Virus record (IMG/VR): IMGVR_UViG_3300050821_005065
Span: 1-64,000 of that record
Source of the DNA: a virus
Reading direction: 5' to 3' (one strand)
Length of the DNA stretch: 64,000 nt
Each line of letters begins with the position of its first letter. Position 1 is the stretch's first letter. Under the pieces are notes generated by a model. The model saw only the letters and a program-made list of their open reading frames with translations, made no database searches and was not told the origin of the DNA. Of the stretch, positions 294 to 61,047 are shown in pieces. The translations under genes were made by a program, and so were the position numbers.

Positions 294-809
294 ATGAAAG
301 AAATCCCGCTCACGCAAGGCCAAGTTGCACTTGTTGATGACGAAGACTACGAGCGCATCTCTGCCCACCCGTGGTATGCGCGCCTTGATCCCGATACCCG
401 CTCGTACTACGCGCTTCGCAACATGACATTTGAAGGCAAGCGAGTTACGCAGCGAATGCATCGGGAAGTTATGGGTCTTGGTTATGGCGATCCGCTAAAG
501 GTGGACCATCGTGTCAGTGGCAACACTCTGGACAATCGAAAGTCGAACCTCCGCTTAGCTAACGATCAACAGAATACACATAACGCTCGTCGCCGGAAGG
601 ATAACACCAGCGGCTTTAAGGGCGTCCACTTCATCAAGGGTTGGAAATACAGAGCGCGAATCCAAGTCAACGGAAAGCGCATAGTGTTGGGTGACCGAGC
701 CACGCCCGAAGCTGCTTACGAGCTTTACGTTGCGGCAGCTAGGGAGTTGCACGGAGAATTTGCGAACGACGGAAAGGGACAGAATGCCGAAGCAATCATT
801 GGAAGGTAA
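294..809 (+). CDS. HNH homing-type endonuclease with AP2 DNA-binding domain
   Basis: Free-standing DNA endonuclease of the HNH/AP2 class common in phages. The 171-residue product starts MKEIPLTQG, the usual N-terminus of this family. It has an HNH core (His56, Asp71-His72, Asn in GNTLDNRKSNLRLA) at about residues 50-95 and an AP2-like domain (GFKGVHF through AAYELYVAAARELHG) at about 107-160. An upstream in-frame ATG at 264 would add 10 residues and overlap groES; the family N-terminus favours 294. The gene sits exactly between groES and groEL and its 3' end overlaps the groEL start by 26 nt, a position typical of a mobile endonuclease. It appears intact. Confidence 0.9.
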   Translation: MKEIPLTQGQVALVDDEDYERISAHPWYARLDPDTRSYYALRNMTFEGKRVTQRMHREVMGLGYGDPLKVDHRVSGNTLDNRKSNLRLANDQQNTHNARRRKDNTSGFKGVHFIKGWKYRARIQVNGKRIVLGDRATPEAAYELYVAAARELHGEFANDGKGQNAEAIIGR

Positions 810-2430
810 CAGTGCTCGCGAGGCACTTCAAAGGGGCCTCGATAAAGTCGTAGATGCGGTTAAGGTAACTCTCGGACCAAGAGGGCGCAACGTTCTGCTG
901 GATCGCCCAGGCCAGCCGCTTGCAACCAGAGACGGCGTAACCGTTGCGAAGGAGCGGGCGAGCCTCCCGGACCCATTTGAAAACATGGGAGCGCAATACG
1001 CTCGTGAGTGCGCCGATGCAGCGGTGGTTGAAAGCGGAGACGGAACCACAACCGCTTCCGTGATCCTTCAAGCCATCGTCTCCGCCGGCATGAAAGCAGT
1101 CTCCGAAGGCGCCGAACCGCTCTTGCTGGCCGATGGGATTCAGATGGCTGCAGCGAAGTGTGCAGAGTTCATCAAGGCCATGTCGATTCCAGCCACGCCA
1201 GAACTCGTGCGCCAGGCTGCGATTGTTTCCACGCACCAAGACATTGAACTCGGAACTTTAATCGCGGAGGCTACCTGCAAGGTCGGGCCCACGGGCGTGC
1301 TTGAGCTGCAGGACTCGCGCGACGAAAAGACCACAATCGAACATCTCGAAGGCTTCTATTTTGGGCGCGGCTGGAGGCCAAACCAGTTCTTTGCCAACGA
1401 CCGGACAGGGCAGAAGTGCGTGCTGAAGAAGCCGTTCATTCTGATCTCGGAGCGGCCGATTGCGGGATCGCACGATCAATTGGCGGGGAATCATATCACC
1501 AAGATTGCGTGCGCCGTCGCAGCGACGGGCAGGCCGTTCCTGATTGTCTCTGAGGATTTGATTGGCGATGCGATGCAGTTTATGTCTGTCAATATGGCAC
1601 GTGGGACGATTCAATTCTGCTTTGTGAAACTCCCTGGATTCCGGGACAAGGCTGGCGAAGTCGAGGATCTTCGCATTGCCGTGGGAGCGAAGCGCGTTCA
1701 TTCCCAGATTGCAAACTCGGCTAACGATCACCTCTCCGGCTTCACGCTTGAGGATTTAGGCTGGTGCGAAGAAGCCGTCATTACACGAGATAGAACAGTG
1801 TTGATCAAAGGCGGCGCCAACGACATGCTCCTGCAAAAGAGAATCAAGCAGCTTGCGGAGCAGGCACGAGAAGCTACCAACGACTACGAGAAAGGGGAAC
1901 TCGAAGCGCGCGCGGCCAGACTCTTTGGCGGGATTGCGGTGTTGAAAGTGGGAGCGAATTCAGAACCGCAGATGTTGGAACGGAAGGCAAGGGCAGAGGA
2001 TGCGATTCATGCATGTAGGGGGGCTTTGCAAGAGGGAGTTGTGCCAGGGGGAGGAGTGGCGCTGTTAAGGGCGGCGATGGCCTATCAATATGCCTATCTC
2101 TCGAAGGATATATGCGCTGGCGAACTTATTCTCGTGCAAGCCATTTGTGAACCCGCCAAACAGATCATACGCAACACGGGACACGGCAGCGCACAAGAAG
2201 TCGTGGAAGCGCTGGGACATCACGAAGGCAAAGACTCATGGGGATTCAACGCAGCCACCGGGCAAGCAGGCGACCTCTACGAAATGGGCATCGTGGACCC
2301 CACTCGTGTTGTGCTGACGGCCCTCACCAAAGCAGCCTCGATTGGAGCTTTGTTGCTGACTTCTGAAGTCTTGGTCACTGATATTCCACAGCCGAAGATG
2401 GTGATGATGCCGCCGGGGGGAGCGTTCTGA
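784..2430 (+). CDS. groEL: GroEL chaperonin (60 kDa), phage-encoded
   Basis: ATP-driven protein-folding chaperonin. The start at 784 is chosen over an in-frame start at 691 because it follows an AAGGGA ribosome site and gives the normal N-terminus; the product is 548 residues, the family length. Conserved ATPase elements are present: VTLGPRGRNV (28-37), TRDGVTV with Asp50, GDGTTTAS with Asp86, and RAEDAIHACRGAL with Asp406, the counterpart of E. coli Asp398. VVPGGGVALLR marks the equatorial domain. The apical domain (about 185-330) is much less conserved, with a roughly five-residue insertion near 225-240. The C-terminus ends PPGGAF and lacks the Gly-Gly-Met tail. It probably pairs with the groES at the left edge to fold a phage protein. 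Confidence 0.95.
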   Translation: MPKQSLEGNSAREALQRGLDKVVDAVKVTLGPRGRNVLLDRPGQPLATRDGVTVAKERASLPDPFENMGAQYARECADAAVVESGDGTTTASVILQAIVSAGMKAVSEGAEPLLLADGIQMAAAKCAEFIKAMSIPATPELVRQAAIVSTHQDIELGTLIAEATCKVGPTGVLELQDSRDEKTTIEHLEGFYFGRGWRPNQFFANDRTGQKCVLKKPFILISERPIAGSHDQLAGNHITKIACAVAATGRPFLIVSEDLIGDAMQFMSVNMARGTIQFCFVKLPGFRDKAGEVEDLRIAVGAKRVHSQIANSANDHLSGFTLEDLGWCEEAVITRDRTVLIKGGANDMLLQKRIKQLAEQAREATNDYEKGELEARAARLFGGIAVLKVGANSEPQMLERKARAEDAIHACRGALQEGVVPGGGVALLRAAMAYQYAYLSKDICAGELILVQAICEPAKQIIRNTGHGSAQEVVEALGHHEGKDSWGFNAATGQAGDLYEMGIVDPTRVVLTALTKAASIGALLLTSEVLVTDIPQPKMVMMPPGGAF

Positions 2431-52855: not shown

Positions 52856-53896
52856 TCACGGCTTCACTCCTAGATTCTCCGGTCTGTAATTCGCGGCCTC
52901 CCATTGCTGCCACGACACGCCTTGCGGCCATTTCTTACTAGGCTTGTCATATGCGCCGATTACCCAACGCTGAAACCCGACAGTCTCTCGCGTTCGCACA
53001 TAGGGCATCGGGTAGGGCCGCGCACCAAACTCTCGCAACCGCCTTCGCCTATAGTCGCAATCCTGCATTGTCTCTCCCGACCAGTAACCGATGATCACAT
53101 AGACCATGATATTGTCGGGCTTTACTCCGTACTTCACGAGCCGCGCCAACCCTAAGAACAAGCGTTCCTCGTCTTTCCTATTGTCCCAAGCGGTATAAAT
53201 GCGCTTGCGGTCCATTGTGTCGTTCCGGTAGTTGACGGATGCAATTGCTTCTGCCGCTTCTTCCGTGAGACATCTCGCATTGATGCCCTGATTGAAGCTA
53301 ACCTTGAAATTGCCGTCTTGTAGTTCCTTGATTCGCGCACGCCATTCAGGCTGTCCGAAAAAGTCGTTATCTAGCAGCAGCACTTCACGAGGCCATGGAT
53401 CGCCACGCCAGATTTCATGGATTGTCCCTACCGCCCGAACTTTGCCTTCCTTCTGTGGAACACAACAATACGGGCAGGTATCCGAAGTCATCCGGCAACC
53501 GCGTTGTGTAAATCCTATCGACTGCCGATAGTAAGGCCAGAGAGAATAATCGCACTCATTGGTCACAATTCCATGCTTCTCTAGGGCCGTTACCTCGCTC
53601 TGGATCGCTGGACTTAGCGGAACGATCTCGGTAGGACGTGCCGGATCAACCCCAGTCCCGCCGACTACTGCATCTGGATACATCCGCAAAAACGTCTCCG
53701 CGAGTGGCAACGTTCGACGAAATAGGATCGACGCATAAACGCACTCGTGATTGTCTCCGAATCGAGGAGCGCAGGCATCCGCATTCCCGGCGATCCGTAA
53801 CTCGACCTCATCTCCTAAAGCTTTGTGATGCGCTGCGATCCGCATCAAGGCTAAGTTGGGGATCTTACCGTCGAGTTGAAATAACAAAACTCTCAT
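52856..53896 (-). CDS. Radical-SAM-like enzyme (346 aa)
   Basis: The N-terminus (MRVLLFQLDGKIPNLALMRI, through about residue 100) resembles the B12-binding-type Rossmann domain that precedes many radical-SAM enzymes. The cluster-binding segment reads IGFTQRGCRMTSDTCPYCCV with Cys134, Cys141, Cys144 and Cys145: spacing C-x6-C-x2-C, three residues longer than the usual CxxxCxxC. Then LLLDNDFFG (barrel strand), FNQGINARCLT and a C-terminal Trp-rich tail. It would bind an Fe-S cluster and SAM; the substrate is unknown. Confidence 0.75.
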   Translation of the reverse strand: MRVLLFQLDGKIPNLALMRIAAHHKALGDEVELRIAGNADACAPRFGDNHECVYASILFRRTLPLAETFLRMYPDAVVGGTGVDPARPTEIVPLSPAIQSEVTALEKHGIVTNECDYSLWPYYRQSIGFTQRGCRMTSDTCPYCCVPQKEGKVRAVGTIHEIWRGDPWPREVLLLDNDFFGQPEWRARIKELQDGNFKVSFNQGINARCLTEEAAEAIASVNYRNDTMDRKRIYTAWDNRKDEERLFLGLARLVKYGVKPDNIMVYVIIGYWSGETMQDCDYRRRRLREFGARPYPMPYVRTRETVGFQRWVIGAYDKPSKKWPQGVSWQQWEAANYRPENLGVKP

Positions 53897-58090: not shown

Positions 58091-58741
58091 TCAAGCCTCC
58101 AATTCTGCCGGTGAGACCGCACCCTTAGTAATCCGGTCCAATAGCCGCTTCCTCGCCGACGCTGCCGCTAAGATTTTGCGCTCCTCGCGCTCCACTTCGG
58201 CAACTTCATTCTCGCTCAACCCCAACAGTTTTCTCCGCCGTGAACTGACCGAACTGTGACGCCGCGACCTCACGACAGCTTCCGCCAGGTTGCGCGTTGT
58301 TTTAGTGGTGTCCATAGCCTTGATTGGCTGCACTCTGTTCACCGAATCTCCGTACCGCACGATGACGGAACGAAGAGAAATCCAAACGAATTTCTTTTTC
58401 ACTTCAGCCGCCGGACGAATCAAGTGGAAAGCTTTCTCGATTCCAAGGTGCCTGAGTTGCGCCCCCGGCTCCAACCGGAAAATGTAAAAGTCGATGCAGT
58501 TCTCAGCGCACATTTTGCCATGCCGTACGATATTGAATCCCCACCCGAGGCATCGACCTTTCTTATACGGCTCCCCCACCTTTACCTCAATGGTTGTTCC
58601 GCGACTCGTGTACAGATCGAACGGTGCCCACCGGCCAGTTTCATTGATTGACAGCCCTTTACCACGGAGCCAATGCCGCACCGAACGCTGACCGGAGATG
58701 CCGATATAATCACTATTATCATCATTTAACGATTTATTCAT
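58091..58741 (-). CDS. PD-(D/E)XK nuclease-like protein (216 aa)
   Basis: First gene of the reverse early operon. ATG at 58741 is favoured by the promoter spacing; a TTG at 58747 is possible. Residues 15-60 hold ISGQRSVRHWLRGKG, then WAPFDLYTSRGTTIEVKVG: Asp42, Glu52 and Lys54 form the P-F-D-x9-E-V-K active site of restriction-like nucleases. The C-terminal 75 residues are a basic helical region. It may be a recycling or defence-related nuclease. Its promoter is part of the divergent leaderless pair. Confidence 0.7.
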   Translation of the reverse strand: MNKSLNDDNSDYIGISGQRSVRHWLRGKGLSINETGRWAPFDLYTSRGTTIEVKVGEPYKKGRCLGWGFNIVRHGKMCAENCIDFYIFRLEPGAQLRHLGIEKAFHLIRPAAEVKKKFVWISLRSVIVRYGDSVNRVQPIKAMDTTKTTRNLAEAVVRSRRHSSVSSRRRKLLGLSENEVAEVEREERKILAAASARKRLLDRITKGAVSPAELEA

Positions 58742-58776
58742 GTACAAAATTTATACCGGAACACTATGCAAGTCAA
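58742..58776 (-). promoter_or_regulatory. Leaderless early promoter, reverse
   Basis: Read on the reverse strand: TTGACT (58776-58771), 17-bp spacer, TAAATT (58753-58748), 6 nt, then ATG at 58741. A TATAAA at 58755-58750 with a 15-bp spacer is an alternative -10. No ribosome site precedes the ATG. Confidence 0.65.
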
Positions 58777-58788
58777 TAGCCTATTGAC
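58772..58788. promoter_or_regulatory. 17-bp palindromic operator candidate between divergent promoters
   Basis: GTCAATAG-C-CTATTGAC, perfect 8-bp arms, lying over both divergent -35 elements. A dimeric repressor bound here could shut off both directions at once. Confidence 0.55.
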
Positions 58789-58818
58789 ATAACCCCTATT
58801 CCATGCGATAACGGTTAC
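58784..58818 (+). promoter_or_regulatory. Leaderless early promoter, forward
   Basis: TTGACA (58784-58789), 17-bp spacer, GATAAC (58807-58812), 6 nt (GGTTAC), ATG at 58819. The predicted transcript starts at or next to the ATG. Confidence 0.65.
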
Positions 58819-58998
58819 ATGGCAACCGCAACCTTCATCTCCGAACGACCGCCTCACATTCACTCGCCCATCCTAATCTTCGGCGAAGGAGTAGACCTTG
58901 AAGCCCAAGTGCCTGTAGGCTATGCCTGCTCTACTTGCCGGGAAGAACTTTGTTCGCTGGTGCCAAGGGAAATTCCCGAGTATCGGCTTGCATCGTAA
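58819..58998 (+). CDS. Small CxxC protein from leaderless promoter (59 aa)
   Basis: MATATFISERPPHIHSPILI onward, with CSTCREELC near residue 37. The ATG lies at the predicted transcription start. Its last 68 nt overlap the reverse-strand gene at 58931. Function is unknown. Confidence 0.6.
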   Translation: MATATFISERPPHIHSPILIFGEGVDLEAQVPVGYACSTCREELCSLVPREIPEYRLAS

Positions 58999-59338
58999 CT
59001 GATTTTGAATCCTCAATGAGCGGATGGCCACTTTTACATGGCTCGGATACGTGGGCATCTCCTTCGTCCGTTTTGACTGGCTTTCGGCTATCGGCCACCG
59101 GTACGGCCCATGGGGCTAACTGGTGAGGCGGTGAAGAATAGTCGTAGACTGTGTAGCGCCCGCCACTTTCGTTGCGGGTCCGCATTTCTACCGACTTGCT
59201 CCGAGAAAAAGCATTCTCCTTCTTGCGACCGAGCTTCAGGGTTAGCTCCACCCCATCCAGTTGCGTCGTTACCCTACAACGCTGCTTTCTGGAATTTCTA
59301 GCCTCTCGCTCGCGTTTTCCGGCCCTGTTCGCGCTCAT
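58931..59338 (-). CDS. Hypothetical basic protein (135 aa)
   Basis: MSANRAGKREREARNSRKQR onward: a very basic N-terminus, then a beta segment (VTTQLDGVELTLKLGRKKEN) and a polar C-terminal half with YTVYDYSSPPHQ. Its end overlaps the forward gene at 58819 in antisense. Ribosome site not evident. Function is unknown. Confidence 0.5.
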   Translation of the reverse strand: MSANRAGKREREARNSRKQRCRVTTQLDGVELTLKLGRKKENAFSRSKSVEMRTRNESGGRYTVYDYSSPPHQLAPWAVPVADSRKPVKTDEGDAHVSEPCKSGHPLIEDSKSVTMQADTREFPLAPANKVLPGK

Positions 59339-59445
59339 GTTTTAGCGGGTTACCTCATACGCCTACTAACCGCAGTCGCGTGTCTCTCCACGCCGCATCC
59401 GCTCATTCAGAATTCAAAGATCGCCGAATCCCTTCTTTCTCCAAA
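59339..59445. other. 107-nt gap with no supported gene
   Basis: Only an 18-residue reverse-strand reading frame is present; no hairpin or promoter is obvious. Confidence 0.4.
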
Positions 59446-59562
59446 CTACTTACGCCAATATGTGCTGACGCTAATCAATATCAACAGGCCAGCCATGATC
59501 CACAAAGCCGCTTCCGTCTCGCGCAGCACGCTGATCAGAGAGTTTACCTGGTCCGGCGTCAA
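59446..59562 (-). CDS. Single-pass membrane peptide (38 aa)
   Basis: TTG start overlapping the upstream stop (TTGA). Product: TPDQVNSLISVLRETEAALW then a hydrophobic helix (IMAGLLILISVSTYW) and RK. The coupling and clear topology support it. Confidence 0.5.
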   Translation of the reverse strand: MTPDQVNSLISVLRETEAALWIMAGLLILISVSTYWRK

Positions 59563-59711
59563 CGAATGCCTTCTTTCTCGGCACAGCGCCGGAGAGCTTC
59601 TTCGAGAGTCTGCACGTTGCTTCGGGCGTTCCACTTCTGCCGCAAAGCCGCCAGCCATTTCCGCGCTAGCGGCGTCAGCTCGAAGTTCATCAGTTTTTTC
59701 TTTCCTGACAT
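59559..59711 (-). CDS. Small helical basic protein (50 aa)
   Basis: MSGKKKLMNFELTPLARKWL onward, with NVQTLEEALRRCAEKEG at the end; the pattern suggests a small DNA-binding (ribbon-helix-helix-like) protein. It is served by the leaderless reverse promoter at 59712-59746, so it is a candidate early regulator. Confidence 0.55.
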   Translation of the reverse strand: MSGKKKLMNFELTPLARKWLAALRQKWNARSNVQTLEEALRRCAEKEGIR

Positions 59712-59746
59712 GCAATAGGTGTAGCGCACAATCTTTATTTCGTCAA
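59712..59746 (-). promoter_or_regulatory. Leaderless early promoter, reverse
   Basis: Reverse strand: TTGACG (59746-59741), 17-bp spacer, TACACC (59723-59718), 6 nt (TATTGC), ATG at 59711. Back-to-back with the forward promoter at 59757. Confidence 0.6.
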
Positions 59747-59756
59747 GAGATTTTAT

Positions 59757-59792
59757 TTGACTTTCTTTTTGCGCGGGAGTAAAACCCTGTGC
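59757..59792 (+). promoter_or_regulatory. Leaderless early promoter, forward
   Basis: TTGACT (59757-59762), 17-bp spacer, TAAAAC (59780-59785), 7 nt, ATG at 59793. The downstream gene begins ATGGCAACC, like those at 58819 and 60877. Confidence 0.65.
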
Positions 59793-60158
59793 ATGGCAAC
59801 CAACCTAGCGCAGCCTGATCTGTTTCCCATCCCTCCAAACCTCAAGCGCAGAGTCCGCGTCATCCCCAAGCCGAAACAGCCGCTCTGGAAATCCTTTTAC
59901 GCTTTCAATGAGGCCAATCCGCATGTGTACCGGAGAATCGTGCAACTGGCGCGGAAGGCGAAGATGCGGGGGCTAGAGCACTACTCAATGGATGGAATTT
60001 TTCACGTCATGCGCTGGGAGATTGCGATCCGGACGAAGAGTAGCGATCAGTTCCGCCTCAACGACCATCACACTTCTTTCTATGCGCGGATGGTGGATGA
60101 ACGGGAAGATGACTTAAAGGGTTTCTTCACTCTCAGGAAACAGAGGGCCAAGAAATGA
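59793..60158 (+). CDS. Conserved-type phage hypothetical protein (121 aa)
   Basis: The C-terminal half (MRWEIAIRTKSSDQFRLNDH onward with SFYARMVDEREDDLKGFF) resembles a small family common in phage and prophage early regions with no known function. The N-terminus is Pro-rich and basic. Served by the leaderless promoter immediately upstream; its stop overlaps the next ATG. Confidence 0.7.
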   Translation: MATNLAQPDLFPIPPNLKRRVRVIPKPKQPLWKSFYAFNEANPHVYRRIVQLARKAKMRGLEHYSMDGIFHVMRWEIAIRTKSSDQFRLNDHHTSFYARMVDEREDDLKGFFTLRKQRAKK

Positions 60159-60361
60159 TCCGTACTATGGAAGAGGTAGAACGCGAAACCGTACTCGCGG
60201 CGATTCAAGAAACTGGCTCCGCTATTGAAACCGCTCGACTGCTCAAGATGGGCAAAACCACAGTGTTCCGCAAGCTGAAGAAGTGGGGCGTACCTGTACC
60301 CGGAACGAATGGGCTGAGGAAGAAAAAGATTCCGGCTCCAGCTCTTCCTCCGAAGCAATAA
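60155..60361 (+). CDS. Fis-type helix-turn-helix regulator (68 aa)
   Basis: Starts at an ATGA overlap. Residues about 10-45 (VLAAIQETGSAIETARLLKM, then GKTTVFRKLKKWG) match the Fis/NtrC-type C-terminal HTH (HTH_8), with a basic Pro-rich tail. It could be a DNA-binding regulator of early or middle genes. Confidence 0.75.
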   Translation: MIRTMEEVERETVLAAIQETGSAIETARLLKMGKTTVFRKLKKWGVPVPGTNGLRKKKIPAPALPPKQ

Positions 60362-60365
60362 CCTG

Positions 60366-60467
60366 ATGCTGCCGCGCACACCGCAAGAGATTAAAGATGC
60401 TCAATTCCGCTGCCCAGGCTGCCAACGTCCAGTGCTCTTGCCGAATGGGAATGGGAATCACAGATGA
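60366..60467 (+). CDS. Zinc-knuckle micropeptide (33 aa)
   Basis: MLPRTPQEIKDAQFRCPGCQ then thirteen residues; one CxxC pair. The stop overlaps the next ATG (ATGA). Probable but short. Confidence 0.4.
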   Translation: MLPRTPQEIKDAQFRCPGCQRPVLLPNGNGNHR

Positions 60468-60829
60468 GAATTACTCCAACCGAAGCGAACACGCAAAAAG
60501 CCTGCTTAGAGTTGTTAGCCGCTCACAAGATATTCGCAGGCCGACTCAACACAGCGGGCATCAAGACCGCCAACGGATTCTTCCAGTGCCATAGCTTCGG
60601 GGCCGGGTGCGCGGATATTCTGGCGTTCGTTGCTGGCAAGGGGATGTGCTGCAATGAGTGCGACTGCGATTTAATCACGCCGCTCTGGATCGAAGTGAAG
60701 GCCCCGCACGGCCAGCAATCGCCCGAGCAAATCACTTTCCAGGTCTTCGTGGAATCGCTCGGACATCACTACTTGCTCATCCGGTCCATTGACCAGTTGG
60801 TGGCGTGGCTGAAAGAAAATGCGGGGTAG
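60464..60829 (+). CDS. VRR-NUC-type nuclease (121 aa)
   Basis: PD-(D/E)XK nuclease of the VRR-NUC family, often found in phage replication modules and able to cut branched DNA. Evidence: the N-terminal helix with Glu7 (TPTEANTQKACLELLAAHKI), RLNTAGIKT, GCADILAF with the catalytic Asp, then WIEVKAPHGQQSPEQITF with Glu-x-Lys and the family Gln. An inserted CCNECDC is unusual. ATGA overlap start. Confidence 0.85.
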   Translation: MRITPTEANTQKACLELLAAHKIFAGRLNTAGIKTANGFFQCHSFGAGCADILAFVAGKGMCCNECDCDLITPLWIEVKAPHGQQSPEQITFQVFVESLGHHYLLIRSIDQLVAWLKENAG

Positions 60830-60841
60830 CGCATTTTGTGC

Positions 60842-60876
60842 TTGACACATTTCTTCCCCTTTGTTACACTTTTGAC
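60842..60876 (+). promoter_or_regulatory. Leaderless early promoter, forward
   Basis: TTGACA (60842-60847), 17-bp spacer, TACACT (60865-60870), 6 nt (TTTGAC), ATG at 60877, followed by ATGGCAACC as at 58819 and 59793. Confidence 0.7.
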
Positions 60877-61047
60877 ATGGCAACCAAACAAAGCGTAGTG
60901 AAGGAGTTGCGGCTAAAGTATCCAGCCGGGTCGCCGCTGGACAAGATGGTGGACCGGCTGCAATCGCACTTCGGCATCGACAAGCCGGCAGTTTTGCAGA
61001 TGGCGCTCAAGAAGCTTTCGGATGCCACGTTCGGAGGCGCGAAGTGA
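60877..61047 (+). CDS. Small DNA-binding-like protein (56 aa)
   Basis: MATKQSVVKELRLKYPAGSP, then a helical region (MVDRLQSHFGIDKPAVLQMA) resembling a ribbon-helix-helix or short HTH fold. Directly downstream of a leaderless promoter. The stop overlaps a GTG start. Candidate repressor or accessory regulator. Confidence 0.6.
   Translation: MATKQSVVKELRLKYPAGSPLDKMVDRLQSHFGIDKPAVLQMALKKLSDATFGGAK

What the first reader, a model, noticed from the sequence alone, without database searches (positions are those of the whole stretch)
58742..60879. Family of five leaderless promoters with fixed geometry
Promoters at 58742-58776 (-), 58784-58818 (+), 59712-59746 (-), 59757-59792 (+) and 60842-60876 (+) all have TTGAC(A/T/G), exactly 17 bp, a degenerate -10 and the ATG 6-7 nt later. 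All three forward ones lead into ATGGCAACC. Transcription would begin at or next to the start codon, so these early mRNAs lack ribosome sites, unlike most other genes here. This implies a deliberate early translation mode, perhaps favouring intact 70S ribosomes at infection onset.
Basis: seen in the sequence. Interest (0 to 1): 0.8.

Follow-up and report, generated by a model that had tools for sequence, protein, structure and literature searches.

The report
Ordinary leaderless promoters in phage early region
A bacterial virus appears to start five of its early messages right at the protein's first codon instead of after a ribosome-binding leader; the pattern is real, but related phages and many bacteria show the same layout, so it is a good example of a known habit rather than a new mode of translation.

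Summary
All five sites are at the stated places with TTGAC(A/T/G), exactly 17 bp, a weak -10 and an ATG 6-7 nt on, and none has a Shine-Dalgarno match. TTGAC-N(30/31)-ATG occurs 10 times in the 72,157-bp virus record, against 4.2 in shuffles; the five outside the family lie inside genes. Best reading: five host-sigma70-type promoters giving (near-)leaderless mRNAs for the first genes of early transcription units. No 5' end has been mapped. The "special early mode / 70S at infection onset" idea is not supported. The same geometry occurs at annotated gene starts in two Acidobacteriota phages, Tunturi_3 and Tunturi_4, one of them the Tunturi_4 homolog of the gene at 59793. It is over-represented in 60 Acidobacteriota genomes (327 hits versus 26 for a reversed pattern and 100 with 6 nt more before the ATG) and in 39 genomes of other phyla. 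ATGGCAACC is not specific to these promoters: all five copies in the record are likely gene starts, but one is SD-led and one overlaps the preceding stop codon. Divergent leaderless phage promoters are already known (PY54 cI/cro, by RACE). New members of a known kind; low-to-moderate interest.

The parts
58742..58776 (-). leaderless-type promoter: -35 TTGACT 58776-58771, N17, -10 TAAATT 58753-58748, 6 nt, ATG 58741
   Evidence: sequence
58784..58818 (+). leaderless-type promoter: -35 TTGACA 58784-58789, N17, -10 GATAAC 58807-58812, 6 nt, ATG 58819
   Evidence: sequence
59712..59746 (-). leaderless-type promoter: -35 TTGACG 59746-59741, N17, -10 TACACC 59723-59718, 6 nt, ATG 59711
   Evidence: sequence
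59757..59792 (+). leaderless-type promoter: -35 TTGACT 59757-59762, N17, -10 TAAAAC 59780-59785, 7 nt, ATG 59793
   Evidence: sequence; the Tunturi_4 homolog has the same arrangement
60842..60876 (+). leaderless-type promoter: -35 TTGACA 60842-60847, N17, -10 TACACT 60865-60870 (10 of 12 consensus, TG before the -10), 6 nt, ATG 60877
   Evidence: sequence
58772..58788 (.). perfect 17-bp palindrome GTCAATAG-C-CTATTGAC spanning the two back-to-back -35 elements; possible operator, not shared by the second divergent pair
58091..58741 (-). 216-aa ORF, first gene of the minus-strand block; PD-(D/E)xK-like IEVK motif by eye only, no family hit
58819..58998 (+). 59-aa ORF MATATF..., orphan
59559..59711 (-). 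50-aa ORF MSGKKKLMNFELTP...; order looks ribbon-helix-helix-like by eye, low-confidence model (pLDDT 67), no database support
59793..60158 (+). 121-aa protein, PHROG 13625 (unknown function); best phage relative is Tunturiibacter phage Tunturi_4 gp47 (44%)
60155..60361 (+). Fis-type HTH protein (HTH_8 above the Pfam cut-off), SD-led distal gene
60464..60829 (+). nuclease / Holliday-junction-resolvase-like protein (phrog_93, phrog_5702), ending 12 bp before the fifth promoter
60877..61047 (+). 56-aa ORF MATKQS..., all-helical model (pLDDT 76), orphan

Best explanation
The five sites are host-RNA-polymerase (sigma70-type) promoters in the early/regulatory region of a tailed-phage genome, read without a phage factor. 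The -10 ends 6-7 nt before the ATG, so transcription should begin at or within a nucleotide or so of the A of the start codon and give leaderless mRNAs for the first gene of each early transcription unit: two divergent pairs plus one internal promoter. Distal genes are then translated by SD or by coupling. The CA-rich ATGGCAACC start is a phage-wide preference for a favourable 5' coding sequence. Shown: geometry, intergenic position, lack of SD, recurrence in related phages and candidate hosts. Inferred: promoter activity, exact +1, early timing, and the host phylum (Acidobacteriota is a lead, not established).
For: Geometry and chance test. No SD at the five starts, SD common elsewhere. The closest phage relative of the 59793 protein, Tunturi_4 gp47, has TTGACA-N17-TAGATT-N6-ATG exactly at its annotated start. 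The same geometry lies at annotated starts of Tunturi_4 gp96 and Tunturi_3 gp51, gp84 and gp139. In 60 Acidobacteriota genomes TTGAC-N18-TANNNT-N6-ATG has 327 hits against 26 for the reversed pattern and 100 when the last gap is 12; single genomes reach 61 against 1. Acidobacteria have on average 13.3% predicted leaderless genes (PMC3160421). CA repeats after the start codon enhance leaderless and SD-led translation (PMC9031893). In PY54 cI and cro are divergent and both leaderless by RACE (PMC4488713). A set of other phage loci also shows a TTGAC-to-ATG peak at 30 and 31 nt (33 and 20 against about 12).
Against: Three of five -10s are weak (C at the last position). No RNA data. No close relative of the whole region was found, so there is no conservation test across the five. 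Other homologs of the 59793 gene sit in operons without such a promoter. The genome-wide excess also contains promoter-plus-ATG pairs that may not be leaderless.
Confidence: 0.75

Rival explanations
1. A stage-specific translation strategy: early mRNAs are leaderless so that intact 70S ribosomes translate them at infection onset, while late genes use SD.
For: All five sites lie at the early/regulatory end; no TTGAC-N30/31-ATG with a -10 at a gene start in the late block; 70S binding to leaderless mRNA is established (PMC9031893).
Against: The geometry is used in hosts and for other phages' genes such as RNase H and integrase. SD-led genes lie interleaved in the same early region. ATGGCAACC is shared with non-leaderless genes. 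First-gene-of-unit position explains the pattern.
Confidence: 0.08
2. Some sites (those with weak -10, e.g. 58784, 59746, 59757) are not promoters, or start elsewhere; the true family is two or three sites plus chance.
For: Only 2 of 5 match TANNNT; a plain consensus scan is not above chance; back-to-back -35s could share one real promoter.
Against: All five share -35, 17-bp spacing, A at positions 2 and 4 of the -10, and precede an ORF lacking SD; the Tunturi_4 homolog supports 59757.
Confidence: 0.3
3. The paired -35 region (17-bp palindrome 58772-58788) is a repressor operator, making this a lysis/lysogeny-type switch like PY54 or lambda immunity.
For: Perfect palindrome over both -35s; divergent first genes; Fis-type and small putative DNA-binding proteins nearby.
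Against: Facing TTGAC elements give 5 of the 8 arm bases for free; the second pair lacks the palindrome; no CI/Cro family hit among the eight genes tested, and integrases were not searched for systematically.
Confidence: 0.15

Closest known systems
Divergent leaderless cI/cro promoters of telomere phage PY54 (PMC4488713); lambda cI
   Same: Divergent phage regulatory promoters with mRNA starting at the AUG
   Different: No CI/Cro homolog identified here; no mapped 5' ends; five sites; different phage group
TANNNT-led leaderless genes of bacteria (Zheng et al. 2011, PMC3160421), including Acidobacteria
   Same: -10 about 12 nt upstream of the start codon, no SD, mostly first genes of units
   Different: Here a near-consensus TTGAC -35 at exactly 17 bp is present and the -10s are weaker
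Leaderless-type starts in Tunturiibacter phages Tunturi_3 and Tunturi_4 (found here; the word leaderless does not occur in PMC11924767)
   Same: TTGACA-N17/18-TANNNT-N6-ATG at annotated starts, one in a homologous gene
   Different: Different phages with little other similarity; several Tunturi_4 promoters share an operator-like ACACC-N-GGTGT repeat that the window lacks

Membership tests
leaderless sigma70 genes | -10 element ending 6-8 nt before the start codon | tested here: met
   weak in 3 of 5
leaderless sigma70 genes | -35 at 16-18 bp | tested here: met
   17 bp in all five
leaderless sigma70 genes | no Shine-Dalgarno upstream of the start | tested here: met
leaderless sigma70 genes | AUG start codon | tested here: met
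   all five ATG
leaderless sigma70 genes | transcript 5' end at the AUG | not testable with these tools
   needs RNA 5'-end mapping
phage immunity switch (PY54/lambda type) | divergent leaderless regulator genes | tested here: inconclusive
   divergent geometry met, but divergent products are orphans
phage immunity switch (PY54/lambda type) | CI/Cro-type repressor encoded at the site | tested here: not met
   no CI/Cro hit in PHROGs or Pfam among the eight genes tested; only a Fis-type HTH at 60155

The most novel reading that the evidence does not exclude
The phage deliberately confines leaderless translation, with a CA-rich ATGGCAACC start module, to early control genes so that they are translated by a different initiation route from the rest of its genome.
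Probability: 0.07. Interest if true: 0.6.

Novelty: new member of a known kind. Interest (0 to 1): 0.25.

Why it matters
It adds a compact, testable set of leaderless promoters in an uncultured phage and shows that exact TTGAC-17-(-10)-6-ATG geometry can flag start codons and short genes that ORF callers may miss. It also shows that an apparent special early mode disappears once candidate hosts and other phages are scanned as controls.

Tried and rejected
Host assignment by the phage GroEL (691-2430): about 40% identity to chaperonins of every phylum tried, uninformative. Terminase and helicase hits point to mixed hosts. Close relatives of the 59793 protein or of the GroEL in IMG/VR: none. Megablast of 40-64 kb against phages: none. 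Rfam and tRNA: none. Homologs of the 59793 gene in Mycobacterium, Polaribacter and cyanobacterial phages and in Acidobacteriota genomes: mostly start-overlapping or leadered, no leaderless promoter, so the trait does not follow the gene family. General 5'-AUG plus SD second start across viruses: only weak in-frame bias (30 of 71), so not a general rule. Structure models of the 50-aa and 56-aa proteins were made without alignments and are too weak to assign a fold.

Full report
What the record is. The window is bases 1-64,000 of a 72,157-bp virus record; I read the rest as L003. Genes run on the plus strand up to about 48.25 kb, on the minus strand from 58.74 down to 48.46 kb, and on the plus strand from 58.82 kb onwards. 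The left part carries a terminase (46624), an HNH endonuclease and a GroEL homolog. The right end carries nucleases, an exonuclease, a replication-initiation protein, a helicase and a methyltransferase. The divergent pair at 58.74-58.82 kb sits exactly at the strand switch. 'Early' is an inference from this layout.

The observation. All five sites are as described. TTGAC-to-ATG distances of 30 or 31 occur 10 times in the record against 4.24 in shuffles; the five that are not in the family lie inside genes. None of the five ATGs has an SD 4-mer, whereas 64 of 90 gene-sized ORFs have one at some candidate start. The -10s are weak in three cases, and a plain promoter scan is not above chance, so the strength of the case is the geometry relative to the start codon.

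Relatives. The 59793 protein belongs to PHROG 13625 and its best phage match is Tunturi_4 gp47, from an Acidobacteriota host. That gene's annotated start is preceded by TTGACA-N17-TAGATT-N6-ATG. Tunturi_4 gp96 and Tunturi_3 gp51, gp84 and gp139 show the same at annotated starts. Homologs elsewhere do not: position in a transcription unit, not gene identity, seems to decide. Tunturi_1 shows no such ATG start.

Hosts and other phages. In 60 Acidobacteriota genomes the strict pattern has 327 hits against 26 for the reversed pattern and 100 for a 6-nt longer gap; four genomes hold half of the hits, but without them it is still 160 against 84 (longer gap) and 23 (reversed). In 39 genomes of other phyla it is 241 against 37; these genomes were reached through a related pattern search, so they are not a random sample. 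The layout is thus ordinary in bacteria. Acidobacteria were already predicted to have about 13% leaderless genes (PMC3160421). The host of this phage is not established.

The ATGGCAACC start. The 9-mer occurs five times in the record, always at a likely gene start: 19785 (SD-led, GCAGGAGACCTT-ATG), 58819, 59793, 60877 and 63654 (overlapping the preceding stop codon). It is a coding-start preference, compatible with known enhancement by CA-rich sequence after the start codon (PMC9031893), not a mark of leaderless genes.

Mechanism. The most likely account is host sigma70 holoenzyme starting at or next to the A of ATG, giving leaderless mRNAs for first genes of early units, with distal genes using SD or coupling. 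Divergent leaderless phage regulator promoters are documented for PY54 (PMC4488713). The 17-bp palindrome over the first pair's -35s may be an operator, but five of its eight arm bases follow from facing TTGAC elements.

Verdict. Real, well described, ordinary: new members of a known kind.

Noticed in passing
L217, L224, L230, L236, L239, L241, L246, L251, L259, L266, L269, L280, L282, L283, L293 (IMG/VR, mostly 56-65% GC) and L262 (40% GC): TTGACA-N17-TATCTT-N6-ATGGCAACCACC leaders in which a likely 5'-terminal ATG is followed 27/30/33/36 nt later by an SD-led second ATG, in frame in 24 of 26 promoters that have such a second start: a possible dual-start (leaderless plus SD) module, more than one copy on several contigs. 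No match to annotated phages for one of them. Across viruses in general the in-frame bias is weak (30 of 71).
   Followed up: partly
window 691-2430: Phage-encoded GroEL homolog (about 40% identity to phage and bacterial chaperonins), strongly diverged from every phylum tried.
   Followed up: partly
L084:16387, L084:37504, L205:16316 (Tunturi_4): Several Tunturi_4 promoters share an operator-like inverted repeat ACACC-N-GGTGT between -35 and -10, next to GTG/TTG codons.
   Followed up: no
window 59446-59715 (-): An 89-aa frame overlapping the 50-aa gene in another frame and ending in a membrane-like segment; which frame is coding is unclear.
   Followed up: no
window 52856-53896 (-): Radical SAM domain protein (phrog_9298) in the minus-strand block of small genes.
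   Followed up: no
L209:40226 (-) in Tunturi_3: Unannotated 120-aa ORF starting ATGGCAACA behind a TTGACA leaderless-type promoter; probably a missed gene.
   Followed up: no
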